Source: Halobacillus kuroshimensis DSM 18393 (GTDB taxonomy: Bacteria; Bacillota; Bacilli; Bacillales; Halobacillaceae). From it: a stretch of DNA of 64,000 nucleotides. Shown here in pieces: positions 687-52,315 of the stretch (its first letter is position 1; each line of letters starts with the position of its first letter). The stretch is taken from assembly GCF_000425705.1 (NCBI RefSeq), contig NZ_AUDY01000011.1, positions 62,001-126,000 of the forward strand, written 5' to 3'. Below the pieces are notes generated by a model. That model was given only the letters and a program-made list of their open reading frames with translations, was not told the DNA's origin and did no database searches. The position numbers and the translations under genes are program-made.

Positions 687-702
687 GTTCTTCAAAAAGA
701 AC
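687..702. promoter_or_regulatory. SinR-like operator, inverted GTTCTYT pair, site 1
   Basis: GTTCTTC-AA-AAAGAAC: two inverted half-sites of the SinR type (known consensus GTTCTYT) in a 7-2-7 arrangement. It lies about 230 bases before the first EPS gene, and a SinR-like protein is encoded at the end of the same cluster. That this particular SinR homologue binds here is inference. Confidence 0.6.
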
Positions 703-804
703 GATTATGATGAAATACAAGATAAAAAGTGTTTACTAAAACTGATAATACGTTCGTTTGTATAAGACACCTTTAAATATTATGTTAATTATTGTAAGTG
801 AGTA

Positions 805-832
805 TTGTATTTTGTTGAAGAGGTGTTATACT
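805..832 (+). promoter_or_regulatory. Sigma-A-like promoter for the EPS operon
   Basis: TTGTAT (805-810) and TATACT (827-832) are separated by 16 bases. A second possible -10, TATAAT at 872-877, overlaps the SinR-like half-site at 866 but has no good -35. Either would give a leader of 30-80 bases before the GTG at 918. Confidence 0.45.
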
Positions 833-865
833 ATCTCAAAAGGTATTCTCTATTAAGCACAAATA

Positions 866-881
866 GTTCTTTATAATGTAA
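866..881. promoter_or_regulatory. SinR-like half-site overlapping a possible -10, site 2
   Basis: GTTCTTT (866-872) is an exact match to the SinR half-site consensus GTTCTYT; the 16-mer continues ATAATGTAA and so matches the perfect form of the site at 5345-5360 (read on the minus strand) at 13 of 16 positions. It overlaps TATAAT at 872-877 and lies 37 bases before the first start codon, a good position for repression. Confidence 0.55.
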
Positions 882-917
882 AAAATACAATTTATCTTAA
901 TTTGAAGGGAGACCATC

Positions 918-2381
918 GTGCTAGCACGTCACACCATCATGTACTTTTTGGCCAGGGGTATCCCGGGCTTAATAAATTTTTCCGCTCTATATATTTACAC
1001 ACGTTTGCTTCTTCCAGAAGAGTATGGAATCTATGCGTTAGTGCTTATCGTAGCGAAGATGGCCGGAATCATATCGTTCCAATGGTTGAGACTTGGTGCG
1101 TTTCGCTTCTATTCAAATTACATAGAAGAGCACATGGAGCAGTTCTTGAGCACTATTCTGGTTTCTTATGTCGTATTGATGTCATTTGTATCCCTTATAT
1201 ATGGGGTGGCCTTTATTGTAGGAAGTCAGTTTATGGAGGCAGGCTTTATATGGATAATCGGCCTCATGTTCATGTTTGTTACCAATTGGTTCGAAATGAA
1301 TTTGTCCATTCTACGAGCACAGCTTGCTCCTGTGACTTTCGGAATTCTTTCCATGGCCAGGGCTGTAATATCATTGATTGTTGGTGTTGTCCTTGTACTC
1401 TATGGTTTTAGTGCATATGGCTTGTTGATTGGTCTTTTCGTTGGGAACGTCCTTCCTATTCTGTTCGTTCATAAGAAACAATGGGGGAGAGTTCGTCTCC
1501 GAAAAGTGAATGTGACGCTTGTGAAAGAATTGCTTCAGTATGGATTGCCTCTAACAGCTACGTTTGCAATGGCGATGGTCATTTATGGTATGGATCGTTT
1601 GATGCTGGGCTGGATGATAGGTGAAAAGGAAGTGGGACTCTATGCCGTTCCGTACGATTTTATTCAACAGACATTGCTTGTCATTATCAGCGTCATCGTC
1701 TCCGCATCTTCTCCCATCATCATCCGCAAGTTTGAAAGTAGCTCTTTAGAAAGTACGTACGATCAAATGAAGAAGACGTTTGAATTGTTGTTGATCATCG
1801 CTGTTCCGTCTTCCCTTGGGATTGTTTTATTGGCACCGAACATCAGCAGTGTCTTCTTCGGGGAAGCATACCAAAACGCTGCCGCCCTGTTGATACCTTG
1901 GATTGTGCCAGCTGTCTTGTTAAATGGTATGAAGGAATCTTATTTCGACCTTCCGTTTACTCTGAGTAAACGGACGCGTTTACAAGTATGGCCGGTGGTA
2001 CTAGGAGCTTTCCTGAATCTAATCTTGAATTATTTCTTTATTCCTGTCGCAGGTGCGAAAGGGGCTGCGATTGCCTCCCTTTTATCCTACGGGTCAGCCA
2101 TGACGGTAAGTGTACTTCTCGGAAGAACTGTGTTCCGACTTCCAATACCATGGGCCCGTTCGGGGAGAGTGATGACCGCATCTCTATTTATGGTTTTTTG
2201 TCTGCTTCCAGTATTGACGCTGGAAGGAGTCCTGGGGCTTGCTGTTCAAGTGATGGTGGGGTTCATCGCTTTTGGATTTGCTGGATTGGTCTTGAATGTT
2301 GGCAGGGGGAGAACGAAGATGTCTCGTTTATTTAAGGCACGGGATACCGACAATTCACCTCCAATAAATAAACGAGCATAG
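918..2381 (+). CDS. Wzx-type polysaccharide flippase
   Basis: Integral membrane protein of 487 residues with about a dozen hydrophobic segments, matching the usual length of oligosaccharide flippases of the MOP superfamily. The N-terminus (ARGIPGLINFSALYIYTRLL then PEEYGIYAL) is the characteristic Wzx/RfbX opening. It would flip undecaprenyl-linked repeat units across the membrane. The start is GTG at 918 with AAGGGAG just upstream. It is the first gene of the EPS operon and 16 bases separate it from the next. A second flippase lies at 12147-13598, so the two may serve different lipid-linked substrates or one may be redundant. Confidence 0.85.
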   Translation: MLARHTIMYFLARGIPGLINFSALYIYTRLLLPEEYGIYALVLIVAKMAGIISFQWLRLGAFRFYSNYIEEHMEQFLSTILVSYVVLMSFVSLIYGVAFIVGSQFMEAGFIWIIGLMFMFVTNWFEMNLSILRAQLAPVTFGILSMARAVISLIVGVVLVLYGFSAYGLLIGLFVGNVLPILFVHKKQWGRVRLRKVNVTLVKELLQYGLPLTATFAMAMVIYGMDRLMLGWMIGEKEVGLYAVPYDFIQQTLLVIISVIVSASSPIIIRKFESSSLESTYDQMKKTFELLLIIAVPSSLGIVLLAPNISSVFFGEAYQNAAALLIPWIVPAVLLNGMKESYFDLPFTLSKRTRLQVWPVVLGAFLNLILNYFFIPVAGAKGAAIASLLSYGSAMTVSVLLGRTVFRLPIPWARSGRVMTASLFMVFCLLPVLTLEGVLGLAVQVMVGFIAFGFAGLVLNVGRGRTKMSRLFKARDTDNSPPINKRA

Positions 2382-2397
2382 TAAAGGAGGGATCGTA

Positions 2398-4218
2398 TTG
2401 TTTTATTGTATATATAGTGGTAGTCAAAAAGGCTTCTTGGAATGGAAAGAACATGTTGATGTTCATAGCTGCTGGCTTCATAAAGATATTGAGTATTTAT
2501 ACTTCGATTTTAAACAGCATATTACAGCTCTTGCTATGATCGGAAACTCAAATAAGCAGATGTTTACTATGCAGGACTCCGAAAAGGAGATTCGCTTGAC
2601 GTTAAGTAATTCATGGAACCCTGAATGGAAAGGGCAGAGGCCTAATGGAGTGGAAATACGCTTATCTAAAAATGAAAGGTATGTGACTATTCAGGTTCCT
2701 TTTTCTACACCTGAGCAAGTCTATTATTACGAGACTAATCAGACGTTATATGCTTCTAACGATCAAAGGTTGCTTGCAAGGTTTGCGAAAAGTAAGTTGA
2801 ATGATATTTCAATCTTTCACTATTTGGAAACTGGGTGCCTTCCTTCTAATTTATCTGTTTATGAAGAAGTGTACCGAATTCCTCCAATGCATAAGTTGGT
2901 ATATTCAGGAGTTGAAAAGTCAGTCCGTTATTGTGGGGAGAAGAGGGGGAGGGATGAATCAAACTATTTTTCAGCTTCAAAGCAAATCGACCAAAGACTT
3001 GAAGAAATATTGGGTACTATCCCTGGAGGATCTAAAGTCTTTTTCAGTGGAGGAGTGGATTCTGCCTTAATCGCTGCTAAGCTGAAAGAGCATGGTCGGA
3101 GTGATGTGACACTAGAAAATTACTCTTTTGGAGATGATGATCAAGAAGCCAAGTTCGCAAAAAGAGTGGCGGATTATATCGGATTGCCTTTTCATCAAAT
3201 GATGTTTGATGAACACAAACTTACCGATGTTCTTGAAAATATAGGTAAAGATTATTCTTTTCCTTATTCGGACCAAGGCACCCTTCAGTCTCGACTGATG
3301 ATTTCCCAAAGCCTTACAAGATCACCTTTTTCTGTAGCTATCGATGGAACAGGCGCTGACCAATTGTTCACAAAACACCAGGACGTGAAAAATTGGGAGA
3401 AGGTGTACCGATTACCACCTTCTATTCGGAAGTTGGCAAGTCCAGTATATGAGTGGATGAAGGTGTTTGAGAGCGATCCAAATATAGGTACCCCTTTAAG
3501 AGCATTTAAGAAAAGCACCGATGCTCCTATGTATTATGCAATGATCATGATGAATAACTGCTTGGACGGCGTAGCTTTTCATATGAGTAAATCTGCACGA
3601 CATAAATTGCTTGAATCCTTTTATATTCGTTCAGTTCAGGAATTGGAAGGACTCTCGGAGAATGAGCAGATTGCTGCTTTAAGAGTCTCCCTTAGATCAG
3701 GCGCGTTGTCGGGTGCAAAGATTCATGATCCGTTACATGTGAATGGAACCCAGACTCTATATCCATTCCTTGACACAGAAATGGTTAAAATCGGGTCAAG
3801 GGTGCCGATAGAAGAGAAGTTTAAGGATGGAGAACAAAAATACGTTTTGAAAAAGATGCTCGCTCGTTATTTGCCTGAGTCATATATATACCGACCAAAG
3901 AATGTGTTCCTTCCGCCAATCAAAAAGGTGATGAGTAACCCGAATGTTGTGGAATGGATCGAAAGTGAAATCCTCGATAACAAAAATCCGATGCTGTCCT
4001 ACGTAGATGTTTCTATGGTTACCTCGCTGTTCCAAAAAGCTAAGGAAGGTAAAGTTTTATCCTTCGATATCTATAATTTCCTTTGGAGTTTTATGATGAT
4101 CAGCAGATGGGTTGCGCAGGTCAATCAAGCAATAAGTATAAAGAATAAATCCAGTATGACCATGAAAATACGAGGTGAGGAAAACCATGCAACAGCCGCT
4201 GCAAGTCGCTTATCTTGA
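2398..4218 (+). CDS. Asparagine-synthetase-like amide ligase lacking the N-terminal glutaminase cysteine
   Basis: 606 residues. The C-terminal half carries the ATP pyrophosphatase loop SGGVDS at residues 217-222, the hallmark of asparagine-synthetase-type AMP-forming ligases. The N-terminal half keeps the length of a class-II glutaminase domain, but the protein begins MFYCIYSG, so the nucleophile Cys expected at residue 2 is absent. Homologues with this loss (beta-lactam synthetase, lasso cyclase) close amides without using glutamine. In an EPS operon an amidation or aminoacylation of a sugar acid is plausible, since Ugd makes one nearby. The start is TTG with AAAGGAGG upstream; the gene overlaps the next by 32 bases. 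Confidence 0.75.
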   Translation: MFYCIYSGSQKGFLEWKEHVDVHSCWLHKDIEYLYFDFKQHITALAMIGNSNKQMFTMQDSEKEIRLTLSNSWNPEWKGQRPNGVEIRLSKNERYVTIQVPFSTPEQVYYYETNQTLYASNDQRLLARFAKSKLNDISIFHYLETGCLPSNLSVYEEVYRIPPMHKLVYSGVEKSVRYCGEKRGRDESNYFSASKQIDQRLEEILGTIPGGSKVFFSGGVDSALIAAKLKEHGRSDVTLENYSFGDDDQEAKFAKRVADYIGLPFHQMMFDEHKLTDVLENIGKDYSFPYSDQGTLQSRLMISQSLTRSPFSVAIDGTGADQLFTKHQDVKNWEKVYRLPPSIRKLASPVYEWMKVFESDPNIGTPLRAFKKSTDAPMYYAMIMMNNCLDGVAFHMSKSARHKLLESFYIRSVQELEGLSENEQIAALRVSLRSGALSGAKIHDPLHVNGTQTLYPFLDTEMVKIGSRVPIEEKFKDGEQKYVLKKMLARYLPESYIYRPKNVFLPPIKKVMSNPNVVEWIESEILDNKNPMLSYVDVSMVTSLFQKAKEGKVLSFDIYNFLWSFMMISRWVAQVNQAISIKNKSSMTMKIRGEENHATAAASRLS

Positions 4219-5338
4219 TCACGCAGAGGAAATGGGCGGCGCAGAATTCAGTTTGTACTACTTAATCAAGGAGATTGATAAGGAGTCCATCCATCCGCAT
4301 CTAATCGTTCCGAATGAAAGTCCCCTGAGAGAAAAAGTTTACCATCATCCATCTGTCACCATTGCCCCACATTCGATGAGCAGCTTGAATATTGTGAAGC
4401 GTCCAATGAATGGTTTATCATTTTTTAGAGATTTATATCGGTTGACCTTCTATATAAAAAAACACATCGACGTTGTACACACCAATACATATAGAAGTGC
4501 AGTTTATGGTTTGATTGCAGGGAAGATGGCGGGGAAAAAGACAGTCTGGCATGTCCGTGATCTCCATGACAGTCTCCTTTTCAAGAAGGTCATGCCTTAC
4601 TTTGCTGATCATATTATAGCTATTTCAAGAGCGGTTGCTCATCAATTCTCTGAGGATGTATTTCGGAAGAAGGGGAGCATCGTTTATAACGGGGTCGACT
4701 TTTCGGAGTACCAATTAGAGCACACAAAAGGGAGTATCAGAGCGGAGTTAAATATACCGCAAGAGGCGGTTCTAATCGGCATGGTTGGGAGAATGACAGC
4801 ATGGAAGGGATACCATCACCTCATTGAAGCTCTTCCGAAGGTGATCCGTCAAGCTCCGCATGTAAGGGTGGTCATAGTTGGAGGCGCGCTGTTTGCAAGT
4901 GATGATTATATAAAGCAATTAAAGCAGATGGTGAAGGAGAGAGAACTGCAGAACCATGTCTGTTTCCTCGGACACCGTGAAGATATTCCAAATATCATGA
5001 AATCTTTGGATATCTTCATCAGCTATTCAGAAGAAGAGCCGTTCGGCAGGGTGATTATCGAGGCTCTGGCCATGGAGACGCCGGTAATTGTCGCAGATTC
5101 AGGAGGAGCTCCTGAAATTATTGAAAACGGTAACTGTGGGGTCATCGCACCTTCCGGGTCCCCGGAAGCATTAACGGCCGCGATACTATCCGTTGTCGAT
5201 GAAGAAGGTAAGCTGAGAGAGCTTGGTTCGAATGGGAGGCGCTGGGTGAAGGAGAAGTTCAATACTAGAAAAGTTGGCAGGGAGATCTATCAAACGTATG
5301 AGTCGTTGTCGGTCCCTGACAAAGGGAAGTTGGTATAA
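4187..5338 (+). CDS. GT4-family glycosyltransferase
   Basis: 383 residues with the GT-B layout of family 4: an N-terminal acceptor half (MGGAEFSLYYLIKEI), a linker, and the donor half with VGRMTAWKGYHHLIEALPKV, then EEEPFGRVIIEALAMETPVI carrying the EX7E-type motif. It transfers a sugar from a nucleotide donor to a growing lipid-linked repeat unit in the cytoplasm. An upstream GTG at 4175 is in frame, but ATG 4187 is preferred because GAGGTGAGG sits six bases before it. The start overlaps the end of the amide-ligase gene, suggesting coupled translation. Confidence 0.85.
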   Translation: MQQPLQVAYLDHAEEMGGAEFSLYYLIKEIDKESIHPHLIVPNESPLREKVYHHPSVTIAPHSMSSLNIVKRPMNGLSFFRDLYRLTFYIKKHIDVVHTNTYRSAVYGLIAGKMAGKKTVWHVRDLHDSLLFKKVMPYFADHIIAISRAVAHQFSEDVFRKKGSIVYNGVDFSEYQLEHTKGSIRAELNIPQEAVLIGMVGRMTAWKGYHHLIEALPKVIRQAPHVRVVIVGGALFASDDYIKQLKQMVKERELQNHVCFLGHREDIPNIMKSLDIFISYSEEEPFGRVIIEALAMETPVIVADSGGAPEIIENGNCGVIAPSGSPEALTAAILSVVDEEGKLRELGSNGRRWVKEKFNTRKVGREIYQTYESLSVPDKGKLV

Positions 5339-5344
5339 AGTATA

Positions 5345-5360
5345 GTTCGTTATAAAGAAC
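5345..5360. promoter_or_regulatory. SinR-like operator inside the EPS operon, site 3
   Basis: GTTCGTT-AT-AAAGAAC in the 42-base gap between two glycosyltransferase genes, with the same 7-2-7 symmetry as site 1. One half (AAAGAAC) is a perfect GTTCTTT on the minus strand; the other differs at one base. An internal operator could act as a roadblock or control an internal promoter. Confidence 0.5.
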
Positions 5361-5380
5361 ATGTTGGAGGGGTGTGTTAC

Positions 5381-5851
5381 ATGAAGGAGCCACTGAAAGT
5401 AGGACTTATCAGTTCTACAGGGGGGCATTTTTCCGAGCTGATGCAGCTGTTGTCAGGTGTATCTGCCTATGATTGTTTTATCGTCACAGAACAAAACAAG
5501 ATTTCAGATGCGATGCACTCGGAAATACATGTCCATTTCTTAGAGCAGCAGGAGAGACGGAAGTGGTCGTTTTTCCTTACATCTATGATGAACTTTTACC
5601 GGTCCTTTCAAATATTTCGCATTGAGAATCCGGATGTCATCATTTCAACTGGAGCTGGAGCCACAGTTCCCCTCTGTCTTTTTGCGAAGCTGTTTGGGAG
5701 GAAAGTGGTTTACATTGAGAGTTTCGCAAATATTACATCTCCTACGCTGACCGGGAAAATCCTGTACCGATTTTCAGACAAATTTTATATCCAATGGGAG
5801 GAGTTACAGAAGTATTATCCTAAAGCTGAGTATAGGGGGAAGATTTTTTGA
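5381..5851 (+). CDS. Alg14-like membrane-anchoring subunit of a two-part glycosyltransferase
   Basis: 156 residues. The opening KVGLISSTGGHFSELMQLL and the later DVIISTGAGATVPLCLFAKL are the conserved features of the Alg14/PssD/Cps14F family, the N-terminal half of a split GT28-type enzyme. Such proteins recruit the catalytic Alg13-like partner to the membrane, and the partner is the next gene, overlapping by four bases (TTGA). ATG 5381 is chosen because GGAGG lies ten bases upstream; the in-frame GTG at 5372 is too close to it. Confidence 0.8.
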   Translation: MKEPLKVGLISSTGGHFSELMQLLSGVSAYDCFIVTEQNKISDAMHSEIHVHFLEQQERRKWSFFLTSMMNFYRSFQIFRIENPDVIISTGAGATVPLCLFAKLFGRKVVYIESFANITSPTLTGKILYRFSDKFYIQWEELQKYYPKAEYRGKIF

Positions 5852-6351
5852 TTTTTGTGACAGTAGGTACTCAGAAATTTCCTTTTGATCGCTTGTTAAT
5901 TGAACTGGATCGGCTCATTGAAAATGATTTTATTACCGATGAAATCATTGCTCAACGTGGATACAGCACTTATGTACCGAAGAATTATGCTTCTTTTGAC
6001 TTTTTACCTTCCCATGAGATTGTGAAGTATTTTCGTAAAGCTAGCATCATCATCACTCATGCTGGAACGAGCTCCATTCTCGAGGGTATCGAAAATAAAA
6101 AGAAAGTCATTGTGGTTCCTCGTCAGAAGAAATATGGGGAGCATGTGGATAACCATCAACTTGATATTACAAACGTTTTCTTGAAGCGCAATTTTGTTGC
6201 TGGTGTTTATGACATGAACCAGCTTGGAGTTACCATCCAGTCAATCGGAGAAAAGGTCTTTGACAGCTACCCCTTTGGCTCGAAGGTGCTCGTGGATTCT
6301 GTAACCAAATTTTTATCCGAACTGTCTGAGGAAAGGGGGCGGGCACAATGA
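5848..6351 (+). CDS. Alg13-like catalytic subunit of a two-part glycosyltransferase
   Basis: 167 residues corresponding to the C-terminal half of GT28 enzymes. It begins IFVTVGTQKFPFDRLLIELD and carries ITHAGTSSILEGIENKKKVI followed by VPRQKKYGEHVDNHQ, the sugar-nucleotide donor site of Alg13/PssE/Cps14G proteins. With the preceding Alg14-like subunit it should add one sugar, often the second residue of the repeat unit. The start is TTG overlapping the previous stop, behind an AGGGGGA ribosome binding site. The donor sugar cannot be read from the sequence. Confidence 0.8.
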   Translation: MIFVTVGTQKFPFDRLLIELDRLIENDFITDEIIAQRGYSTYVPKNYASFDFLPSHEIVKYFRKASIIITHAGTSSILEGIENKKKVIVVPRQKKYGEHVDNHQLDITNVFLKRNFVAGVYDMNQLGVTIQSIGEKVFDSYPFGSKVLVDSVTKFLSELSEERGRAQ

Positions 6352-7676
6352 AGATAACCGTAGTCGGATCAGGGTATGTCGGTCTGGTGACAGGGGTATG
6401 CCTCGCTGAAATGGGCCACAGGGTCATCGGATTGGATATAGATGAAGACAAGGTGCAGCAGATGCGCAACGGAATTTCTCCTATTTACGAACCTGGGATT
6501 GAAGAATGGATGGTAAGGAACGTGGAGGCAGGCCGGTTGTTGTTCACAACGGATAAAGAGAAGGCCTATACCGAGTCAGACATCGTTATGGTTGCTGTTG
6601 GTACACCTCAACGTCCGGATGGTTCTGCTGATTTGAGTTTTATTGAATCGGTAGTGATGGATCTTGCTTCCTATGTAAACCACAATATTATTTTAGTCAT
6701 TAAAAGCACAGTCCCTGTCGGTACCAACCACTATGTAAAATCCTTAATTGATAGACACCTTCACCATGATGTAACGGTTCAAATGGCGTCCAACCCTGAA
6801 TTTCTTAGGGAAGGCACTGCGATTAAGGATTGTCTTGAGGGGGATCGGATTGTGCTGGGAGCAGAAAATCAGGAAGTACATGACGTTTTGAGAAGCATGT
6901 ACCGTCCATTCGGAATTCCGATTTATGCGACAGATATCCGTAGTGCGGAATTGATTAAATATGCTTCGAATGCTTTTCTGGCGACAAAGATTAGTTTTAT
7001 TAATGAGATTGCTGCCATCTGCGAGAAGGTAGAGGCAAATGTGGACGATGTGGCGGAAGGGATGGGAAAAGACAAAAGAATTGGACCGTCCTTCCTGAGG
7101 GCAGGGATTGGTTACGGCGGATCGTGTTTTCCAAAGGATACAACAGCCTTGGTACAAATCGCTGGTGATTATGATTATCCGTTTCGCTTGTTAGAGTCGG
7201 TTATTCAAGTGAATACGAAGCAGCAGAACCTCCTTGTCGAAAAGGCTCTTAAGTATATCGGTCACTTGGAGGGGCTGGAGGTAGCGTTGCTGGGGCTCTC
7301 CTTTAAACCAAATACTGATGATATGCGGGAGGCCCCCTCTATTGCTATTGCTCATCAGTTGGTCCGTTATGGAGCGAATATCCGTGCTTATGATCCCGTA
7401 GCTGTAGATAAGGCGAAAGGTATTCTCCCATCATCTATCTCTTATAAAAACACATGGGAATCTGCCGTTGAAGGAGCTGATATCGTATTTATTCTGACAG
7501 AGTGGGATGAAATCAAGCAGCTACCTTTAAAAAAACTCCCCTCTCTGATGAAAAGTCCAAATGTATTTGACGGAAGAAATTGTTTTTCCTTAGTCGAAGC
7601 AGAGGAAGGGAAAGTAAACTATTATTCTATCGGTCGTCCCAATGTTTTATCAGGTGTGAAGGAGGTTGTGCTATGA
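6348..7676 (+). CDS. ugd: UDP-glucose (nucleotide sugar) 6-dehydrogenase
   Basis: 442 residues, the usual length. The NAD site VGSGYVGLVTGVCLAEMGH is at residues 6-24, and the catalytic cysteine lies in GYGGSCFPKD (Cys260). KSTVPVGT and the C-terminal GLSFKPNTDDMREAPS complete the family pattern. It oxidises UDP-glucose to UDP-glucuronate with two NAD+, supplying an acidic sugar for the polymer; GalU further down the operon supplies UDP-glucose. It overlaps the preceding gene by four bases (ATGA) and the next one likewise. A UDP-mannosaminuronate-type substrate is less likely, given galU in the same operon. Confidence 0.9.
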   Translation: MKITVVGSGYVGLVTGVCLAEMGHRVIGLDIDEDKVQQMRNGISPIYEPGIEEWMVRNVEAGRLLFTTDKEKAYTESDIVMVAVGTPQRPDGSADLSFIESVVMDLASYVNHNIILVIKSTVPVGTNHYVKSLIDRHLHHDVTVQMASNPEFLREGTAIKDCLEGDRIVLGAENQEVHDVLRSMYRPFGIPIYATDIRSAELIKYASNAFLATKISFINEIAAICEKVEANVDDVAEGMGKDKRIGPSFLRAGIGYGGSCFPKDTTALVQIAGDYDYPFRLLESVIQVNTKQQNLLVEKALKYIGHLEGLEVALLGLSFKPNTDDMREAPSIAIAHQLVRYGANIRAYDPVAVDKAKGILPSSISYKNTWESAVEGADIVFILTEWDEIKQLPLKKLPSLMKSPNVFDGRNCFSLVEAEEGKVNYYSIGRPNVLSGVKEVVL

Positions 7677-9004
7677 AGCTTGTACTCTTATCAGGAGGCG
7701 CAGGAAAGAGACTGTGGCCGTTGTCCAACGGTGCAAGGTCCAAGCAGTTCTTAAGGGTTCTGAAGGATGAAAAAGGGTGCCTGGAGTCGATGGTGCAGCG
7801 CGTGTGGCGTCAAATCAAGCAGGTAAGCTTGGACGGAGATACCCTGATTGCGGCTGGCAGCCATCAAGTGGAAATTCTTGAGCATCAACTGGGGCACCAA
7901 GCGACGTTGATCCTTGAGCCTGAGCGGAGAGATACGTTCGCTGCGATCGCTCTATCTGCTTCCTACTTGTATTCCATTGAAGGAGAGAGCTTAAACTCAA
8001 TCATTGGTGTCCTTCCTGTCGATCCTTATGTGGAGGACCATTTCTTCACGAAGGTGTCGGAGCTGGAGCAAGCACTTGAGAGCTCGGGCGCCGATATCGG
8101 ATTGGTCGGTGTCACTCCTACTTATCCTTCTTCAAAGTATGGATATATCGTTCCTCAATCTTCCGCCTCTTCAGAATTGATTAAGGTGGGACATTTTAAA
8201 GAGAAACCAACCGAAGAGGTCGCAGAGAAGCTTATCGATCAGGGTGGCTTATGGAACAGCGGTGTGTTCGCCTTCAAACTGGAGTACATGATCTCTTTAT
8301 TAGTAGATATGGGGCTGCCGATTCATTATGAGGAGCTGGTCAAAAAATACTCCCAGATTCCCAAGAACAGTTTCGATTATGAAGTTGTAGAAAAGGCGGA
8401 CCATGTCGTCGCCATGGCTTATGAAGGATTTTGGAAAGACTTAGGGACATGGAATACGTTGACAGAAGAGATGGGAACAGTTGTCACGGGGAATGGGCGA
8501 TCATGCGAAGAATCGATCAACACTCACGTGATAAATGAATTGGATATTCCAATAAAGGTCATCGGCGTCCAGGATGCTATTATCGCAGCAAGTCCTGATG
8601 GGATACTCGTCGCAGATAAGCAAAAAAGTCCACGAATTAAGCATTTACTAGGGGAAGAGGAAGAGAGGGTCCGGTATGTGGAAGAGAGCTGGGGAACAGC
8701 ACGAACTCTTGAGACCATTCTGGATGGACTTTACGAATACATGACCACTCGTATTAGTATTCGTAAAGGTCATACGTTCGAGACCTCTCTTGTCAAAGGT
8801 GAGAATGAGGTTTGGACAATCGTCAAAGGAAAAGGTCGATCCATAGGCGAAACAGAGGAAAGTCTTATTCGGGCCGGTGACGTCTTACAACTCCCAGCGG
8901 GATCCGGACACATCATGAAAGCGGAGGAGAATTTGGAGATCATTGTTGTAAGAAGGGCACATTGTGAACGAAAAGGAGCACCGTTGGAAGCAGTCTCAAA
9001 ATAA
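7673..9004 (+). CDS. Mannose-1-phosphate guanylyltransferase
   Basis: 443 residues. The nucleotidyltransferase signature GGAGKRLWPLS is at residues 8-18, followed by SKQFLRVL; ILEPERRDTFAAIAL and VEKADHVVAM are typical of GDP-mannose pyrophosphorylases. A cupin-like tail follows (ENEVWTIVKGKGR, LQLPAGSGHIMK), but the terminal block expected of bifunctional phosphomannose isomerase/GMP enzymes is missing, so isomerase activity is doubtful. It makes GDP-mannose from mannose-1-phosphate and GTP. ATG 7673 overlaps the ugd stop (ATGA) and has GAAGGAGG upstream; a longer in-frame reading back to 7580 would lie inside ugd and is rejected. Confidence 0.85.
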   Translation: MKLVLLSGGAGKRLWPLSNGARSKQFLRVLKDEKGCLESMVQRVWRQIKQVSLDGDTLIAAGSHQVEILEHQLGHQATLILEPERRDTFAAIALSASYLYSIEGESLNSIIGVLPVDPYVEDHFFTKVSELEQALESSGADIGLVGVTPTYPSSKYGYIVPQSSASSELIKVGHFKEKPTEEVAEKLIDQGGLWNSGVFAFKLEYMISLLVDMGLPIHYEELVKKYSQIPKNSFDYEVVEKADHVVAMAYEGFWKDLGTWNTLTEEMGTVVTGNGRSCEESINTHVINELDIPIKVIGVQDAIIAASPDGILVADKQKSPRIKHLLGEEEERVRYVEESWGTARTLETILDGLYEYMTTRISIRKGHTFETSLVKGENEVWTIVKGKGRSIGETEESLIRAGDVLQLPAGSGHIMKAEENLEIIVVRRAHCERKGAPLEAVSK

Positions 9005-9085
9005 AACCGTGGTGTACTTAATTTCCATATAAACGGTAAAAAATAGCAGGCTGAGGAATGATCCTAACATATTCAGGAGGTAGAC

Positions 9086-9862
9086 ATGGGAGAATCCATT
9101 GATTTCAAAGACGTTTTTCGGTTAATCAAGCGAAGGGCTTTGATCATTTTACTTGTAGGTGTCTTAGGTGCTTTGACAAGCGGGGTTGTCACTTATTATG
9201 TCCTTCAACCCACTTATGAATCATCGACACAGCTTCTTATCAACCGGACTCCGGCTGAAGACGACTCATCTGCTAATATCAGTCAACTCCAAGCCGACTT
9301 GACAATGATGCGGTCATACCAGGTGATGATTACAAGCCCTGTTATCCTCGACAAAGTCATCGCTGAACTGGAATTGTCTGAGTCTCCGGAGGAACTGGGC
9401 GAGCAGATTACTGTCAGCAGTGAAGCTGAATCCCAGATTATCCAGATAACCGTACAGGACGACAAATTGGAACAAAGTGTCGAACTGGCCAACACGATTG
9501 CAAGTACTTTTCAGAAGGAAGTCGTGGGTTTGATGAATGTTGATAATGTCAACATTTTGACAGAAAGCACAGTAGGTGGGAGTGAGGAAATTGAAGTGGA
9601 CGCTTTGACATCAATCATCATTGCGTTCATAGGCGGCTTGGCTGCTGGAACCATTCTCGTGTTCATTGTTGAATATTTCGATCGGACCTTAAAGAGTGAG
9701 AAAGAAGCTGAACAGCTGCTTGGTCTTCCGGTCCTTGTGACAATCGGTTCTATTGATAAAAAGAAACACATGTTCAAAGAGCTTCAGGAGGACCAATCGC
9801 TTATTCCGCGCGTAAAAGGAAGGGGAACGAATTCCGTTGAAACTCAAGAAAGAGCAAATTAA
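9086..9862 (+). CDS. Wzz/YveK-type chain-length determinant (polysaccharide co-polymerase)
   Basis: 258 residues with two membrane spans: one near residues 17-38 (ALIILLVGVLGALTSGVVTY) and one near 175-197 (ALTSIIIAFIGGLAAGTILV). They flank an extracytoplasmic domain, the standard layout of Gram-positive Wzz/EpsA/CapA proteins. Such proteins set chain length and activate a partner BY-type tyrosine kinase through their C-terminal tail; the partner is the next gene, which overlaps by 26 bases. The start at ATG 9086 is supported by AGGAGG. The 81-base gap before it is the largest within the first half of the operon. Confidence 0.85.
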   Translation: MGESIDFKDVFRLIKRRALIILLVGVLGALTSGVVTYYVLQPTYESSTQLLINRTPAEDDSSANISQLQADLTMMRSYQVMITSPVILDKVIAELELSESPEELGEQITVSSEAESQIIQITVQDDKLEQSVELANTIASTFQKEVVGLMNVDNVNILTESTVGGSEEIEVDALTSIIIAFIGGLAAGTILVFIVEYFDRTLKSEKEAEQLLGLPVLVTIGSIDKKKHMFKELQEDQSLIPRVKGRGTNSVETQERAN

Positions 9863-10520
9863 GAGACGTTCAAAAGGTATTGCCGCATATATGGATCCTC
9901 TATCGCAAAGTGCGGAACAGTTCCATTTGTTATTAGAAGCTTTGGAATGGAAGAAACAGCATTCTCTTTCAGTTTTAATAACTTCCCCTAATGAGGGAGG
10001 GGGGACATCTACTGCGGCTTCCAATTTGGCGATAGTTGCAGCAGAAACAGGCCTCAGCGTGCTGCTAGTGGATGCTAATTTCAGGAGTCCGGTTCTTCAC
10101 GAATTATACGCGGCGGAGCAAGCCATTGGATTTTCCGATGTTCTGAAGGGAAAACAATCGCTCTCGAATGCTATCCAATCGACTAGTGTAGAAAACCTGG
10201 ACGTGCTTACCAACGGTTACGACGCAACGAAAAACCACCCTTCCAGGTGGGTTCATTCTTCAAGGATGGGCACATTTATGAAGGAAGCCAAACAACAGTA
10301 TAAATTGGTCGTCTTCGATACATCAGCTATGCTTCCATTCTCTGAAGGACAAGTATTAGCTGAAGAGACCGATACTACTTTGATTGTCCTTAATCATAGA
10401 AAAACGTCCAAGAGTGATGTAGAGAAGCTGAAAGAAAGGCTGCAAGCATCCAGTATCCACGTGTCTGGTATTGTGTATAACCATGGCACTTCTGAGAAGA
10501 GGAAAACGAAAACGCTTTGA
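9837..10520 (+). CDS. BY-kinase-like protein with a degenerate Walker A motif
   Basis: 227 residues, homologous to EpsB/CpsD/CapB tyrosine kinases. The fold markers are present: SVLITSP, the Walker A' strand VLLVDANFR (Asp79) and the Walker B strand LVVFDTSAM (Asp161). However, the Walker A loop reads GGGTST at residues 54-59 where active kinases have GEGKST, so the phosphate-binding lysine is Thr57. The C-terminus (KRKTKTL) also lacks the usual tyrosine cluster. I infer a pseudokinase that may keep only a structural role with the Wzz partner. The start is TTG 9837 behind AAGGAAGGGG. Confidence 0.8.
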   Translation: MKLKKEQIKRRSKGIAAYMDPLSQSAEQFHLLLEALEWKKQHSLSVLITSPNEGGGTSTAASNLAIVAAETGLSVLLVDANFRSPVLHELYAAEQAIGFSDVLKGKQSLSNAIQSTSVENLDVLTNGYDATKNHPSRWVHSSRMGTFMKEAKQQYKLVVFDTSAMLPFSEGQVLAEETDTTLIVLNHRKTSKSDVEKLKERLQASSIHVSGIVYNHGTSEKRKTKTL

Positions 10521-10554
10521 GGGTATCGCTAAGATTACGATAGGAGGAGTGTAA

Positions 10555-11436
10555 ATGAAAGAGATTAAGAAGGCTATTATCCCGGCTGCTGGTTTAGGAA
10601 CGAGGTTTCTCCCAGCTACAAAAGCCTTGCCAAAAGAAATGCTTCCTATAGTCGATAAGCCAACCATCCAATACATCGTAGAAGAGGCGGTTGCGTCTGG
10701 AATCGAGGATATCCTCATTGTGACAGGGAAGGGAAAACGAGCCATAGAGGACCACTTCGACCATGCGTTTGAATTAGAGGATAACCTCGTCCAGAAGGAA
10801 AAATTTGAGCTGCTGCGGGCTGTGCGGGAGATATCAGACATGGTCGACATCCACTACATCCGCCAAAAAGAACCTAAGGGACTGGGGCACGCCGTCTTGT
10901 GCGCCCGAAAGTTTATCGGTGACGAGCCCTTTGCTGTCTTACTAGGGGATGACATTGTCGAAGGTGACGAACCATGCCTGGCGCAGTTGATTCATCAATA
11001 CAAACAAACAAATTCAACCATCATAGGCGTGCAATCAGTAAAAGAAGAAGAAACCTCACGTTATGGAATTATAGATCCAATAGCTGAAGAAGATCGTAGA
11101 TATCGAGTAGGAAATCTGGTGGAAAAACCACAGGAGCTTCCCCCTTCCAATTTGGCCATTATGGGGAGATACATTCTGACGCCTGAAATATTTGAATTTC
11201 TTTCACAGGAAAAACGGGGAGCGGGTGGTGAAATTCAACTTACTGATGCCATCCAGGAGCTTACAACCATCCAGGATGTCTATGCCTATTGTTTTGAGGG
11301 AGAGCGCTTTGACGTAGGTGAAAAGCTGGGCTTTATTTTGACCAACCTACACTTTGCATTAAAAAATGAGAGGTTGAGAGAATCCGTTTTAGATGAAATG
11401 CAGATGCTTATGGAACGACATAGAATCTTGACATAA
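10555..11436 (+). CDS. galU: UTP-glucose-1-phosphate uridylyltransferase
   Basis: 293 residues, the typical GalU/GtaB length. The N-terminal signature [20 protein letters not shown] begins near residue 8, and [20 protein letters not shown] and [17 protein letters not shown] are canonical. It converts glucose-1-phosphate and UTP to UDP-glucose, the substrate of the Ugd encoded earlier in this operon. It has a strong TAGGAGGAG ribosome binding site. A housekeeping copy probably exists elsewhere, as EPS operons often carry a second galU. Confidence 0.92.
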
Positions 11437-11450
11437 GGAGCGGAGTGGTC

Positions 11451-12125
11451 ATGAGTTTAACAAAGCCCAGGCAAAAGTCGATAGCCTTTCCTGAAAAGCT
11501 GGATGTACCCTCTCCGACCAGGACTTACTTCATTATGAAACGCACCTTCGATTTGCTTGCTGCTCTTATTGGTTTGGTCATCCTTTCCCCTGTTTTTCTG
11601 ATTGTTTCCATTCTGATTAAATGGGAGGACCCTAAAGGGCCTGTGCTGTTTAAACAGCTGAGAGTAGGGGAGAGCGGAAGCACCTTCTATATGTATAAGT
11701 TTCGATCGATGGTCTATAACGCGGAAGAAATGCTGGATACTCTTATTGATCAAAATGAAGTAGAGGGCCCCATGTTTAAGATGAAGCGGGATCCAAGGAT
11801 TACGAAGGTTGGATATTGGATACGACGTACGAGCATTGACGAATTTCCGCAGCTTATAAATGTACTGAGAGGAGAAATGAGCCTCGTAGGGCCTAGGCCG
11901 CCACTTCCGAGAGAAGTCATAATTTACTCAAACTATGATATGCAGCGGCTATTGATCCGGCCGGGGTGTACAGGGATGTGGCAGGTGAGTGGCAGAAGTA
12001 ATGTAAGCTTTAAAGAAATGGTTCAACTGGATTTGTACTACATTCAACATCAATCCTTGAAGCTGGACATGAAGCTGCTCTTTAAAACGTTTTATGTCGT
12101 AGTGAGTTCCAAGGGTGGTTACTGA
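11451..12125 (+). CDS. Undecaprenyl-phosphate sugar-1-phosphate transferase (initiating phosphoglycosyl transferase)
   Basis: 224 residues. One N-terminal reentrant helix (FDLLAALIGLVILSPVFLIV) is followed by the conserved core KFRSM, WIRRTSIDEFPQLINVLRGE and MSLVGPRPPLPRE, which defines the monotopic phosphoglycosyl transferases (WcaJ/WbaP/EpsL type). It starts each repeat unit by moving a sugar-1-phosphate onto undecaprenyl phosphate at the inner membrane face. ATG 11451 is chosen over the in-frame GTG 11445, given the spacing of AAGGAG/GGAG. The donor (UDP-glucose, UDP-galactose or another) cannot be told from sequence alone. Confidence 0.9.
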   Translation: MSLTKPRQKSIAFPEKLDVPSPTRTYFIMKRTFDLLAALIGLVILSPVFLIVSILIKWEDPKGPVLFKQLRVGESGSTFYMYKFRSMVYNAEEMLDTLIDQNEVEGPMFKMKRDPRITKVGYWIRRTSIDEFPQLINVLRGEMSLVGPRPPLPREVIIYSNYDMQRLLIRPGCTGMWQVSGRSNVSFKEMVQLDLYYIQHQSLKLDMKLLFKTFYVVVSSKGGY

Positions 12126-12146
12126 GTTTGATAGGGAGATGAGGGA

Positions 12147-13598
12147 ATGGTAAGAGACTCAGTTCTGCTTTCCGCCCACAGGCTGTTACGATCCATATCA
12201 ACATTGTTCCTTACGATGATCCTGGCAAGGACACTTACGATGGAGGAAATGGGAATCTATCAACTGCTTCTGATTATCACGATCACGCTTGGAGCGTTGG
12301 TCCCGTTCGAAATGTCCACCTCCTTCATGTATTTTCATAACAAGACAGATGATGCTAAAGAGAAGAATCGGATCATAAGCAATACGTTTGTTTCCCTATT
12401 CCTTTTAGCCATTCTGACATTTATGATTCTTTATCTTGGAAGTACACTCGGGTTATTTCTTACTGATGATGCGATGTCCCCTTTAGTGATTTGGGTGGGG
12501 ATTTGGTGTTTTTCCATTATTGCTGGAAGCCATTTGGAGAATTTGTATGTGTCCACGGATAAAGCCAAGCTATTCAGCATCTTCTCTCTTGTGTATTACC
12601 TTGCTTATGCAGCTACTGCATTCCTGATCATCCATAGAGATGGAGACCTTCTAAGCATCATCCAGTTTATTGCCATCTTTGAACTTGTGCGTATGATTAT
12701 CCTGCAGGCTTTATACATCGTGAAGCAGCCGTTCGCACTTAAGGTGGACTGGCCATTGCTGAAGCAGCAAGTGATCTATACGGGTTCCGTTGGTGCAGTA
12801 ACGGCAATTACGGTGGTTAATGGGTATGCAGATAAAATTCTTGTGAAGTTCTTTTCTAATCTGGAAGAATTCGCTATTTTCGCCATCGTTTCCAAGGAAA
12901 TCCCGTTTGTGCTGACAATAACGGCCTCTGTTGTCACTGTCATGCTCTCCAAATTAAGCCATTTATACAATGTGAAGAACGACGTGAAACGGACGCTTTC
13001 CCTTTGGCAGAGCACCAGTAAAATTCTTGCCGTCATCATCTTTCCAATGTTTTGGATACTACTATTTTATAAAGAGGAATATATTTCGCTGATTTATTCT
13101 GATATGTATTTGACAGGGATTCCGATTTTTTTGATCTATTTGATCAAGTTTCCGCTGAGTTTTACTGTTTTCTATACCCTGCTGTTGATTTCTGGAAATC
13201 AAAAGCTTGTTTTAATTAATACAGCTATTGTCGTGGGATCAAACCTGGTGTTGAGTTATATAGGGGTTTTGTCGTTTGGTCCCTATGGTGTAGCTGTGGC
13301 AACGGTTAGCACTGCATTCATAGGGGCTTATCTTCAGCAGAGGGACGTGTGCAGGGTGTTCGGAATCAAACAAAGGGAACTGCTGCCTTATCTCATGATT
13401 GCAAGGACTTTTCTAATTTCAGGTGGTATCAGCTATGTTGTTCTTCAGTTCACTCGTTTTCTACCGGTGCACATGTTTATTCAGTTTTTTATTGGTGGAC
13501 TACTCATTATGATTAGCACAATGGCTGTTTCTTACAAATTGAAAGACATCCCGTCCGGTCATTTATCTGAAGCTTGGAGACGAAGGAAAACCGCATAA
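12147..13598 (+). CDS. Second Wzx-type flippase
   Basis: 483 residues with about a dozen transmembrane segments. The opening (SILLSAHRLL-like DSVLLSAHRLLRSISTLF, then ARTLTMEEMGIYQLLLIIT) matches the MOP-superfamily polysaccharide transporters. It is only distantly similar to the flippase at 918-2381, so the operon codes two. One may export the main repeat unit and the other a lipid-linked side sugar. It stands next to the phosphoglycosyl transferase and before the RmlA-like gene. The start is ATG 12147 behind GATGAGGGA. Confidence 0.85.
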   Translation: MVRDSVLLSAHRLLRSISTLFLTMILARTLTMEEMGIYQLLLIITITLGALVPFEMSTSFMYFHNKTDDAKEKNRIISNTFVSLFLLAILTFMILYLGSTLGLFLTDDAMSPLVIWVGIWCFSIIAGSHLENLYVSTDKAKLFSIFSLVYYLAYAATAFLIIHRDGDLLSIIQFIAIFELVRMIILQALYIVKQPFALKVDWPLLKQQVIYTGSVGAVTAITVVNGYADKILVKFFSNLEEFAIFAIVSKEIPFVLTITASVVTVMLSKLSHLYNVKNDVKRTLSLWQSTSKILAVIIFPMFWILLFYKEEYISLIYSDMYLTGIPIFLIYLIKFPLSFTVFYTLLLISGNQKLVLINTAIVVGSNLVLSYIGVLSFGPYGVAVATVSTAFIGAYLQQRDVCRVFGIKQRELLPYLMIARTFLISGGISYVVLQFTRFLPVHMFIQFFIGGLLIMISTMAVSYKLKDIPSGHLSEAWRRRKTA

Positions 13599-13628
13599 GC
13601 GAGGCGGATCATAAAGGAGGAGAAGGCT

Positions 13629-14363: not shown

Positions 14364-14383
14364 ATCAAACAGGGGGTAATGAT

Positions 14384-16008: not shown

Positions 16009-16025
16009 AGGGTGGAGGGAAAACA

Positions 16026-17132: not shown

Positions 17133-17134
17133 TA

Positions 17135-17150
17135 ATTCTCTATAACGAAA
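17135..17150. promoter_or_regulatory. Degenerate SinR-like site inside the EPS operon, site 4
   Basis: ATTCTCT-AT-AACGAAA in the gap between the GT4 gene and the polymerase gene. It keeps the 7-2-7 shape and agrees with the minus-strand form of site 3 at 13 of 16 positions, but the outer G and C of both half-sites are lost. It may be a weak or decayed operator. Confidence 0.3.
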
Positions 17151-17174
17151 GAAGAATAGAAGAGGGGAATTGCT

Positions 17175-18596: not shown

Positions 18597-18597
18597 A

Positions 18598-19515: not shown

Positions 19516-19533
19516 ACGACTGGAGGGCTAACA

Positions 19534-21377: not shown

Positions 21378-21418
21378 AAGTCTTCAATCCTACCTTTATG
21401 AAGGGTGAGAGATGTTGA

Positions 21419-21766: not shown

Positions 21767-21802
21767 AAGAGAATTAGATAGGAGCGAAGAACCGTCGGAC
21801 AT

Positions 21803-49791: not shown

Positions 49792-49795
49792 TATA

Positions 49796-49828
49796 AAAAG
49801 TCACAGCCGTCAGGGGCTGTGACTTTTT
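49796..49828. terminator. Bidirectional terminator between convergent genes
   Basis: AAAAAGTCACAGCC pairs exactly with GGCTGTGACTTTTT around GTCAG. Confidence 0.92.
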
Positions 49829-49829
49829 G

Positions 49830-50729: not shown

Positions 50730-50741
50730 GATCCTCCTCCT

Positions 50742-51752
50742 TTATATAAAGAATGCGTCATACCACAGGCTCACGGCGTATACGACAACCGTTACGATCA
50801 CTAAAAAGGCAAGAACAAACCTTTTTTTGAAATAAGCCAGCATTAAAATCGTGTTTTTTAAGTCGGTCATGGGTCCATAAACGAGAAAGGCAAGAATAGA
50901 GGTCGAAGAAAAGAGTCCTTTAAAAGAAGAAGCGACAAAGGCATCAGCCTCTGAGCACAAGGATAGAATGTAGGCAAGTCCCATCATCACCGCTGGTCCG
51001 GCCAGTGCTCCATTCCCAATATCCATTAATGTTTCCCGTGCAACATAAGTTTGAACAATTCCGGCGAATAAGGCTCCAATTATGAGAAACTTCCCCATAT
51101 CGAAAAATTCATCACTGGCATGCTGGAACGTTTCGGCAATTTTACCTGACCGATCGTTGTCGTTGTCATGGGTATGCTGGTGCTTCGCGGCTTCTGTTGT
51201 TTTTTTATTCAGCTGCCAGCGATTGCCGAAAAATTGATAAATGACAGCCCCTACAAGCAAGGAAACGATGAAGGCCAGTCCCATTCTTGCCCAGGCAATA
51301 CTGAGGTCGGTCTGAAAGGCATAAAACGTCGACAAAAAGACGATGGGATTAAGGACAGGGGCGGAGACAAGGATGACAATCCCTACATGAAGCGGCATCC
51401 CTTTTTGGATCAGTCTTCGTACAATCGGAACAATCGCGCATTCACATACCGGAAAGACAGCGCCAATGGCAACGGCAGGGAACAGAGCCAGATAAGGGTT
51501 GGCGGGTATGTATTTTTTAAGTGTTTCTTCTTTCAAAAATGTTTGAATTACTGCAGATATAAATACACCAAGAAGTACGAAGGGGATGGCTTCCAATACA
51601 ATGCTGATGAACATCGTGTTTAAATCTAATAAAGAGGGTGGGATGGAAAACATGTTTTCAAAAGGAATGGTATCACCAAATAAAAAAAGAGCGAAAAAAA
51701 TCACTAATAAAAAATAAATCATACTGGATGGCGGAGAATGATCCTGGTACAA
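50742..51752 (-). CDS. YcgR/DUF318-family permease
   Basis: 336 residues from TTG 51752, seven bases after AAAGGAGG; the longer frame from 51809 would begin within the Zur box. Eight or so spans form two repeated halves: IVLEAIPFVLLGVFISAVIQ, VFPVCECAIVPIVRRLIQKG (conserved CEC motif), and SLCSEADAFVASSFKGLFSS. Members (UPF0718) are linked to metal handling. A central His-rich cytoplasmic loop (AAKHQHTHDNDNDR) could bind zinc. The Zur box just upstream and the YcgQ partner support zinc starvation control. Confidence 0.83.
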   Translation of the reverse strand: MYQDHSPPSSMIYFLLVIFFALFLFGDTIPFENMFSIPPSLLDLNTMFISIVLEAIPFVLLGVFISAVIQTFLKEETLKKYIPANPYLALFPAVAIGAVFPVCECAIVPIVRRLIQKGMPLHVGIVILVSAPVLNPIVFLSTFYAFQTDLSIAWARMGLAFIVSLLVGAVIYQFFGNRWQLNKKTTEAAKHQHTHDNDNDRSGKIAETFQHASDEFFDMGKFLIIGALFAGIVQTYVARETLMDIGNGALAGPAVMMGLAYILSLCSEADAFVASSFKGLFSSTSILAFLVYGPMTDLKNTILMLAYFKKRFVLAFLVIVTVVVYAVSLWYDAFFI

Positions 51753-51780
51753 ATAAAGTCCTCCTTTACATTTCGGTTTA

Positions 51781-51803
51781 TAAATCGTAATGATTTCGAT
51801 TAT
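51781..51803. promoter_or_regulatory. Zur box upstream of the YcgR/YcgQ operon
   Basis: TAAATC then GTAATGATTTC then GATTAT, nearly the full Bacillus Zur consensus with one base changed in the right arm. It lies 29 bases upstream of the TTG start of the permease gene (minus strand). Confidence 0.8.
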
Positions 51804-52063
51804 ACACATATACTATTAACCGGAATTTCATAGACTTTGTCAATACTAGATACAAGAAAAGTATATGATAGAAATATGAGGTTAATTCGTATTGATTACA
51901 ATTTGATCAATAGAGATTGGGGGGATAACGGTAAACGAAGCACACATTCCAGCATGAAATCATGATCACATATTTTATTTTGTGAATCTCTGTAAATAAG
52001 AAATTGGACTACCGTAATTTGGTAAAATGAAAGGTGTAGAAAATGATTGGAGTGAGAGGGATT

Positions 52064-52249
52064 ATGACCAAACAAAAATGGGGAATCCTATTTGTCGTGG
52101 CAAGCGCAACCGCAATGATAATCAACTTGGTATACTTCAAGTCAGGAGACTATTATGATGTTATCCGGATCCTTTCCTACGCTGTGTTCATCATAGGGTC
52201 ACTTATGATTCCCACCTATGCAAAAGCTGAAAAAAAGACGGATTCCTAA
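52064..52249 (+). CDS. Hypothetical small membrane protein
   Basis: 61 residues from ATG 52064 (GTGAGAGGG just upstream; an in-frame ATG at 52043 adds seven residues). Two hydrophobic spans are seen: GILFVVASATAMIINLVYF and ILSYAVFIIGSLMIPTY, with a short charged C-terminus. It resembles many Bacillus small YkzI-like proteins without a known function. A terminator follows directly, so it is a single-gene unit. The 310 bases upstream hold the Zur box of the divergent operon and nothing else I can name. Confidence 0.65.
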   Translation: MTKQKWGILFVVASATAMIINLVYFKSGDYYDVIRILSYAVFIIGSLMIPTYAKAEKKTDS

Positions 52250-52273
52250 TCAAAGGGAGTTCGTCTTTTTTTA
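52231..52273 (+). terminator. Terminator after the small membrane protein gene
   Basis: AAAAAAGACG pairs with CGTCTTTTTT; part of the left arm lies within the gene's last codons. Confidence 0.75.
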
Positions 52274-52299
52274 TTTATGTAACCGCATACAATTGTTCG

Positions 52300-52315
52300 T
52301 TCTCCATAAAGAACT
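52300..52315. promoter_or_regulatory. SinR-like operator upstream of the sugar transporter, site 5
   Basis: GTTCTCC-AT-AAAGAAC has the same 7-2-7 inverted layout as the site at 687-702, about 350 bases before the transporter start. It would link the transporter to the EPS regulon. Confidence 0.45.

What the first reader, a model, noticed from the sequence alone, without database searches (positions are those of the whole stretch)
687..52315. SinR-like repressor at the end of the EPS operon with five matching 16-bp operator-like sites
The protein at 21419-21766 has both the SinR DNA-binding domain and the SinI/SinR oligomerisation helices. Sites with a 7-2-7 inverted GTTCTYT layout occur at 687-702, 866-881 (one strong half), 5345-5360, 17135-17150 (degenerate) and 52300-52315. 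All five lie in gaps between genes, two inside the operon and one ahead of a sugar transporter. In B. subtilis sinR lies far from eps, and its antagonist SinI is adjacent to it; here the repressor is at the 3' end of the EPS cluster and no sinI-like gene is visible. This suggests a self-contained matrix switch with a different way of relieving repression.
Basis: partly seen in the sequence, partly recalled or inferred. Interest (0 to 1): 0.78.

Follow-up and report, generated by a model that had tools for sequence, protein, structure and literature searches.

The report
SinR-like repressor inside its EPS operon
A salt-loving relative of Bacillus subtilis carries, inside its slime-making gene cluster, a diverged cousin of the biofilm repressor SinR, and SinR-type binding sites mark that cluster and its counterparts in related bacteria, so slime production probably has an extra built-in brake.

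Summary
The window belongs to a Halobacillus-type genome. 21419-21766 encodes a 115-aa SinR-family protein whose DNA-binding domain matches the SinR-DNA structure. Three sites (687, 5345, 52299) are one mismatch from the SinR inverted repeat and all lie between genes. 866 and 17135 are no better than chance by score; an unlisted site at 845 ranks fourth in the window. The genome also has a true SinR and SinI-like genes elsewhere, so 'no SinI' is true only of the window, and a self-contained switch is not supported. The protein is instead one member of a distinct SinR clade: 17 of 20 members examined lie beside EPS genes, three beside a single glycosyltransferase gene. In 12 of 12 clade clusters with an epsA-like gene, a site with at most one mismatch lies 41-171 bp upstream of it. 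The clade keeps the recognition helix but has a 3-residue insertion (20/20 against 0/50 canonical SinRs) and changed core residues in the oligomerisation helices. Best reading: an operon-encoded SinR paralogue, insulated from SinI, that gives local negative feedback on EPS. SlrR-like antagonism of SinR is the main rival. No binding was tested.

The parts
21419..21766 (+). SinR-family repressor paralogue (P0001, 115 aa), last but one gene of the EPS cluster
918..23335 (+). EPS cluster: flippase, asparagine-synthase-like, glycosyltransferases, Alg14/Alg13-like, UDP-glucose dehydrogenase, Wzz, AAA-domain protein, sugar transferase, RfbA/RfbC-like, Wzy-like, hexapeptide transferase, SinR-like, beta-helix protein
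687..702 (.). SinR-type inverted repeat, 1 mismatch, starting 231 bp upstream of the first EPS gene (GTG at 918)
866..881 (.). one strong half-site plus a weak half (3 mismatches, rank 8); supported by position only
824..832 (+). extended -10-like TGTTATACT ahead of the first EPS gene (read by eye; the consensus scan did not list it)
   Evidence: sequence; one search lists no + strand promoter
5345..5360 (.). SinR-type inverted repeat, 1 mismatch, in the 33-bp gap between the glycosyltransferase gene and the Alg14-like gene
17135..17150 (.). degenerate SinR-type repeat (3 mismatches, rank 6, not above chance) in the gap before the Wzy-like gene
52299..52314 (.). SinR-type inverted repeat, 1 mismatch, upstream of a sugar transporter; kept in the nearest relative G014, not found at <=2 mismatches just upstream of five other homologues

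Best explanation
The EPS cluster is under SinR-type control. Repressors bind GTTCTYT inverted repeats at the operon promoter (687, perhaps 845-881), at an internal gap (5345) and before a transporter (52299). The genome's true SinR, relieved by SinI, is the default repressor of such sites. The protein at 21419-21766 is a paralogue made from the EPS operon itself. It keeps the SinR recognition helix, so it probably binds the same sites. Its oligomerisation helices have diverged (about one helical turn inserted, changed core residues), so it probably pairs mainly with itself and is poorly disarmed by SinI. Result: once SinI opens the operon, the operon's own product accumulates and damps or ends EPS transcription, a local negative feedback that travels with the cassette. 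Shown by sequence: homology, distinct clade, operator placement, altered hook, presence of SinR and SinI elsewhere. Inferred: co-transcription, DNA binding, self-pairing, SinI-insensitivity and the sign of the feedback.
For: Clade of 21 of 89 rows apart from canonical SinR, support 99/87. Recognition-helix K28, S29 and R36 in 20 of 20 clade members, Asn at 33 in 19 of 20. Similar gene order: after a hexapeptide transferase (EpsM-like) and one further gene, here DRL_cat, in relatives a DegT-type aminotransferase. Operators: 34 of 34 sites with <=1 mismatch are intergenic in 17 regions that are 11.3% intergenic; reversed control 1, in coding sequence. A <=1-mismatch site lies 41-171 bp upstream of the epsA-like gene in 12 of 12 clusters that show one (epsA-likeness), and a <=2-mismatch site 262-272 bp upstream of the epsC-like gene in 6 of those 12. 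No site at <=3 mismatches lies in the 41-bp gap before P0001, which fits co-transcription. Hook: 3-residue insertion in 20 of 20 clade members and 0 of 50 canonical SinRs; L81F 17/20, A85L 17/20, M86K 18/20, F95L 16/20, positions named as the SinR dimer core in PMC3163267 (passages). AlphaFold: HTH plus two helices, 64-85 and 90-113.
Against: No binding or expression data. Sites also occur at EPS-type and other genes in genomes without this paralogue (G002, G013, G015, G018, G026), so SinR alone can account for them. Of 15 sites with <=1 mismatch in the 13 further stretches, three were flagged as coding. Genome-wide the pattern is only mildly enriched in the genus (216 against 133 for the reversed control over 22 genomes) and hardly in the eight named relatives (61 against 56): the signal is in where the sites lie. 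G058 has the gene beside an EpsM-like gene but no site at <=2 mismatches in 17 kb. Four of the 12 epsA clusters show no epsC site. P0001 itself is a long branch and has Ala/Ser where most of the clade has Leu85/Lys86. SinI-like proteins of this genome carry a basic residue at the position of Lys86 (read by eye), so the change could also mean SinI-like behaviour.
Confidence: 0.5

Rival explanations
1. SlrR-like antagonist. P0001 is made when the EPS operon is on, joins SinR in hetero-oligomers, takes SinR off the operators and locks the operon on (double-negative loop as for SlrR in B. subtilis).
For: Best NCBIfam match is SlrR, though far under its cut-off (68.4 against 250 bits). Hook helices are homologous to those of SinR. 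A SinR-controlled gene that encodes a SinR paralogue is the SlrR logic (PMC10134886 passages).
Against: Recognition helix has Asn33, not the Lys33 of SlrR (PMC3163267 passage). Several core positions of the SinR dimer are changed and a 3-residue insertion shifts the second helix, which argues against pairing with SinR.
Confidence: 0.27
2. The sites belong to the chromosomal SinR alone; P0001 is a passenger or regulates other targets through an altered half-site.
For: True SinR is in the genome, and similar 16-mers sit at non-EPS genes and in genomes without the paralogue. Residue 33 differs from SinR.
Against: The paralogue is kept beside EPS genes in 17 of 20 clade members across several genera, and sites concentrate around those loci.
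Confidence: 0.15
3. One reading: a self-contained matrix switch whose only repressor is P0001 and which lacks SinI.
For: No SinI match on the window's contig; the EPS cassette is absent from the nearest relative and brings its own regulator.
Against: True SinR, SinI and a split SinR/SinI pair lie in the same genome.
Confidence: 0.05

Closest known systems
SinR of Bacillus subtilis (SinI-SinR module)
   Same: HTH fold and recognition helix, homologous two-helix hook, operators of GTTCTYT inverted repeats upstream of eps genes
   Different: Separate clade; encoded inside the EPS operon; PF08671 not reached; 3-residue insertion and changed dimer-core residues; a true SinR exists elsewhere in the genome
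SlrR of Bacillus subtilis
   Same: SinR paralogue tied to the eps locus and presumably expressed when SinR repression is lifted
   Different: Asn33 instead of Lys33; under the SlrR model cut-off; inside the operon rather than a separate gene near epsA (the location of slrR is recalled)
SinI antirepressor
   Same: Shares the hook-helix ancestry
   Different: P0001 has a full DNA-binding domain; SinI-like genes are elsewhere in the genome

Membership tests
SinR (orthologue) | SinR-type HTH with conserved recognition helix | tested here: met
SinR (orthologue) | C-terminal SinI/SinR domain (PF08671) over its cut-off | tested here: not met
   no PF08671 hit in P0001; distant homology by profile comparison only
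SinR (orthologue) | groups with B. subtilis SinR and the genome's own sinR | tested here: not met
   separate clade, 99/87; true SinR of the genome is C2:98294
SinR (orthologue) | sinI adjacent | tested here: not met
   no SinI-domain hit on the window's contig
SinR (orthologue) | tetramer that binds GTTCTYT repeats and is released by SinI | not testable with these tools
   needs protein
SlrR | passes NCBIfam NF046032 | tested here: not met
   68.4 bits against 250
SlrR | Lys at residue 33 | tested here: not met
   Asn33 in P0001 and in 19 of 20 clade members
SlrR | expression under SinR control at the eps locus | tested here: inconclusive
   inside a gene cluster with SinR-type sites; no expression data
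SlrR | forms a complex with SinR | not testable with these tools
   needs protein
SinR-type operator (7-2-7 inverted GTTCTYT) | matches the inverted-repeat layout bound best by SinR, between genes | tested here: met
   three sites in the window; 34 of 34 intergenic in 17 regions

The most novel reading that the evidence does not exclude
A subfamily of SinR repressors has moved into EPS operons across halophilic and marine Bacillaceae and evolved an oligomerisation code of its own, so that it reads the same operators as SinR but cannot be disarmed by SinI: a second, SinI-blind channel that lets a portable EPS cassette limit its own expression after the cell-wide switch has been thrown.
Probability: 0.33. 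Interest if true: 0.65.

Novelty: new variant of a known kind. Interest (0 to 1): 0.48.

Why it matters
SinI-SinR-SlrR is a well-known bistable switch worked out mainly in B. subtilis (general knowledge). A recurring operon-encoded SinR paralogue with the same kind of operators but altered pairing helices gives a natural case of rewiring: same DNA code, different partner code. It also predicts which EPS clusters are autoregulated, and it makes partner specificity between SinR, SinI and a paralogue directly testable with small proteins.

Tried and rejected
Pattern counts by the genome search were used instead; they show mild genus-wide enrichment (216 against 133) and hardly any genome-wide in eight named relatives (61 against 56), so placement, not number, carries the argument.

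Footprinting of the window's own promoter in congeners failed: the first EPS gene has only one other match in 22 genomes, at 35% identity. Clusters with an epsA-like gene were used instead.

The transporter site: 7 matches in 6 of 22 genomes. Of the six loci other than the window, one has a site close upstream (G014), four have none at <=2 mismatches and one has a site at -1128, so it is lineage-specific at best.

Permutation control: of 40 shuffled half-site palindromes one gave 31 hits at <=1 mismatch; it is GTYCTTT, which contains GTTCTTT and so is the same motif; the next best gave 5.

Rows dropped: L098, L099, L028, L009, L007 and L066|1913 before the tree. L096 (Priestia flexa, very long branch) falls in the clade but was left out of the 20-member comparison. 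L078 (Salirhabdus) is close to P0001 by BLAST but outside the clade; its region is nevertheless one of the 17, while those of G055 and G058, fetched later, are not. In one search two canonical rows show gaps at the HTH. The neighbour listing at the end failed and was redone. L139 (G003) was fetched but not analysed. The 17 regions include close relatives, so the 34 sites are not independent. Gene calls in these regions are longest-ORF calls, not curated.

Papers: PMC3163267 abstract and passages; PMC10134886, PMC5519356 and PMC8481266 passages; PMC6976573 term search with no occurrences; the rest search listings only. An embedded SinR-like gene in EPS operons was not seen in the listings; the library lacks most subscription journals. 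The position of slrR beside epsA is recalled.

Foldseek's own search was not obtained; only the VIA-align second look (printed again in 99 and 100) was. Its SinR rows cover residues 1-66, so the hook was not tested by structure.
Full report
WHAT THE WINDOW IS. The window is contig 4, 62001-126000, of a 3.85-Mb genome. One congener, G001, carries its P0001 relative at the same contig coordinates as Halobacillus halophilus AcN7-4, so the host is taken to be a Halobacillus-type bacterium. From 918 to 23335 on the plus strand lies an exopolysaccharide cluster: flippase, asparagine-synthase-like protein, glycosyltransferases, Alg14/Alg13-like pair, UDP-glucose dehydrogenase, Wzz, AAA-domain protein, sugar transferase, RfbA/RfbC-like, Wzy-like, hexapeptide transferase and a beta-helix protein. 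The SinR-like gene, 21419-21766, is the last but one.

THE SITES. Three sites are one mismatch from GTTCTYTNNARAGAAC, and all three are between genes. A matrix made only from 34 sites of other genomes ranks them 1, 2 and 3 among all positions of the window; 845 is fourth, a coding position fifth, 17135 sixth and 866 eighth. In random windows from a first-order Markov model, sites of score 10 or more average 0.62 per window (maximum 3) and the best single score was 19.2, so the first three, and perhaps 845 (12.2), stand out. Reading, TGTTATACT at 824-832 looks like an extended -10, which would put 845 and 866 just past the transcription start; the consensus scan does not list it. In the whole genome 9 places have at most one mismatch (reversed control 3); five are clearly intergenic, two are inside longer ORFs and two are ambiguous.

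SINR AND SINI ELSEWHERE. A true SinR (109 aa, PF08671 58 bits) is at C2:98294 with a two-mismatch site 66 bp upstream. A SinI-like gene is at C2:177717. An HTH-only SinR-like gene (80 aa) followed by a separate SinI-like gene (49 aa) is at C2:179353-179766, with a two-mismatch site 122 bp upstream. All 41 genomes searched have SinI-domain matches, 39 over the cut-off.

A DISTINCT CLADE IN EPS OPERONS. From 31 loci found among 84,980 species genomes and hits in 52 of 61 genomes including the window's own, the closest relatives of P0001 (39-53% identity in the rows that match it best) form a clade of 21 rows in a tree of 89 (support 99/87; few columns, bootstrap not fully settled). Leaving out one very long branch, 17 of 20 members lie beside EPS genes in Halobacillus, Rossellomorea, Ornithinibacillus, Cytobacillus and unnamed relatives; three (Gracilibacillus) lie beside a single glycosyltransferase gene. 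Two of the 17 show only part of a cluster: G058 one EPS-like neighbour, G021 the end of a cluster. The usual order is sugar transferase, hexapeptide transferase, DegT-type aminotransferase, SinR-like. Six of 22 genomes of the genus have the gene.

OPERATORS AT THE SAME CLUSTERS. In 17 regions (382,515 bases, 11.3% intergenic; 16 without the window) 34 of 34 sites at one mismatch or fewer are intergenic (32 of 32 without the window); the reversed pattern gives one, in coding sequence; at two mismatches the counts are 51 intergenic and 8 coding against 1 and 23. Twelve of 12 clusters with an epsA-like gene have a <=1-mismatch site 41-171 bp upstream of it; the first genes resemble one another or Wzz, and the five tested besides the window's (G010, G011, G034, G062, G066) carry the Wzz domain. 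Six of these 12 have a further site 262-272 bp upstream of the epsC-like gene (three of the six at two mismatches), G057 one at 388 bp and G055 one at 14 bp. Gracilibacillus has a <=2-mismatch site 41-98 bp before the glycosyltransferase gene in 3 of 3, and a perfect site 125-150 bp before a gene that is a response regulator in the one tested in 3 of 3. Sites also occur at genes of genomes without the paralogue, including an EPS-type operon of G002 (epimerase and Wzz) and, at <=2 mismatches, the HTH-only gene of G015, G018, G026 and G028, so they are SinR-type sites in general.

WHY THE PARALOGUE LOOKS INSULATED. In an alignment with B. subtilis SinR, all 20 clade members and none of 50 canonical SinRs have a three-residue insertion between core residues 98 and 99. 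Of the nine dimer-core residues named by Colledge et al. 2011 (PMC3163267, passages), L81 becomes F in 17 of 20, A85 becomes L in 17, M86 becomes K in 18 and F95 becomes L in 16. P0001 itself has A at 85 and S at 86. The recognition helix is kept: K28, S29 and R36 in 20 of 20, and N at 33 in 19 of 20, where SinR has S and SlrR has K. The simplest reading is same DNA code, different partner code.

THE CASSETTE VARIES. In G014, whose SinR is 97% identical, the flanks are collinear, but 4.3 kb replace 30.4 kb that includes the whole EPS cluster. The three larger ORFs of those 4.3 kb match no ORF of 150 aa or more in the corresponding 52 kb of this genome at E <= 1e-5. Gain here or loss there was not decided, and the stretch 26.6-35.5 kb also found no DNA match in this part of G014.

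MECHANISM AND RIVALS. Most likely SinR, relieved by SinI, opens the operon, and the operon's own SinR paralogue then provides a SinI-resistant brake. The chief rival is SlrR-like titration of SinR. The sign of the feedback, the binding and the partner choice are all inferred.

Noticed in passing
G000 C2:179353-179766 (L030:9354-9596 and 9618-9767): Split SinR: an HTH-only protein with a separate SinI-like protein right behind it and a SinR-type site upstream. From the lists, the HTH-only gene is in 20 of 22 genomes of the genus and a SinI match lies directly behind it in 15 of these 20 (not found there in G008, G009, G011, G012, G013).
   Followed up: partly
G000 C2:177717-179128 (L030:7718-9129): A lone SinI-like gene followed by an AraC-family regulator gene sits just upstream of the split pair, about 79 kb from sinR, unlike the sinI-sinR pair of B. 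subtilis.
   Followed up: partly
G000 C9:108658 (L033:8659) and G013 C12:221729 (L184:7730): A perfect SinR-type 16-mer lies about 200 bp upstream of a subtilase gene in both genomes (202 and 216 bp; domain tested for the first).
   Followed up: partly
G000 C2:309377 and 309472 (L032): Two SinR-type sites 95 bp apart between an aldo/keto reductase gene and a 333-aa protein with only weak coiled-coil matches and a hydrophobic N-terminus, a candidate matrix protein.
   Followed up: partly
G000 C2:333116 (L038:5117): A two-mismatch SinR-type site just upstream of a CpsB/CapC-type gene; similar sites precede genes that look alike in G002 and G013 (L181, L186).
   Followed up: partly
window 21803-23335 (+) and 23389-25143 (-): Two convergent beta-helix proteins (PF13229) at the end of the EPS cluster, perhaps polysaccharide-modifying enzymes.
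   Followed up: no
Gracilibacillus regions L173, L174 (site 10351), L180: Perfect SinR-type sites before a LuxR-type response-regulator gene next to the SinR-like gene in three Gracilibacillus genomes (domain tested in one).
   Followed up: partly
L169, L175, L177 and L133 regions (G061, G065, G066, G021): Further sites upstream of a 643-655 aa gene near the EPS clusters; it is asparagine-synthase-like in the two tested (G061, G066). The window's EPS cluster has a comparable gene at 2398-4218.
   Followed up: partly
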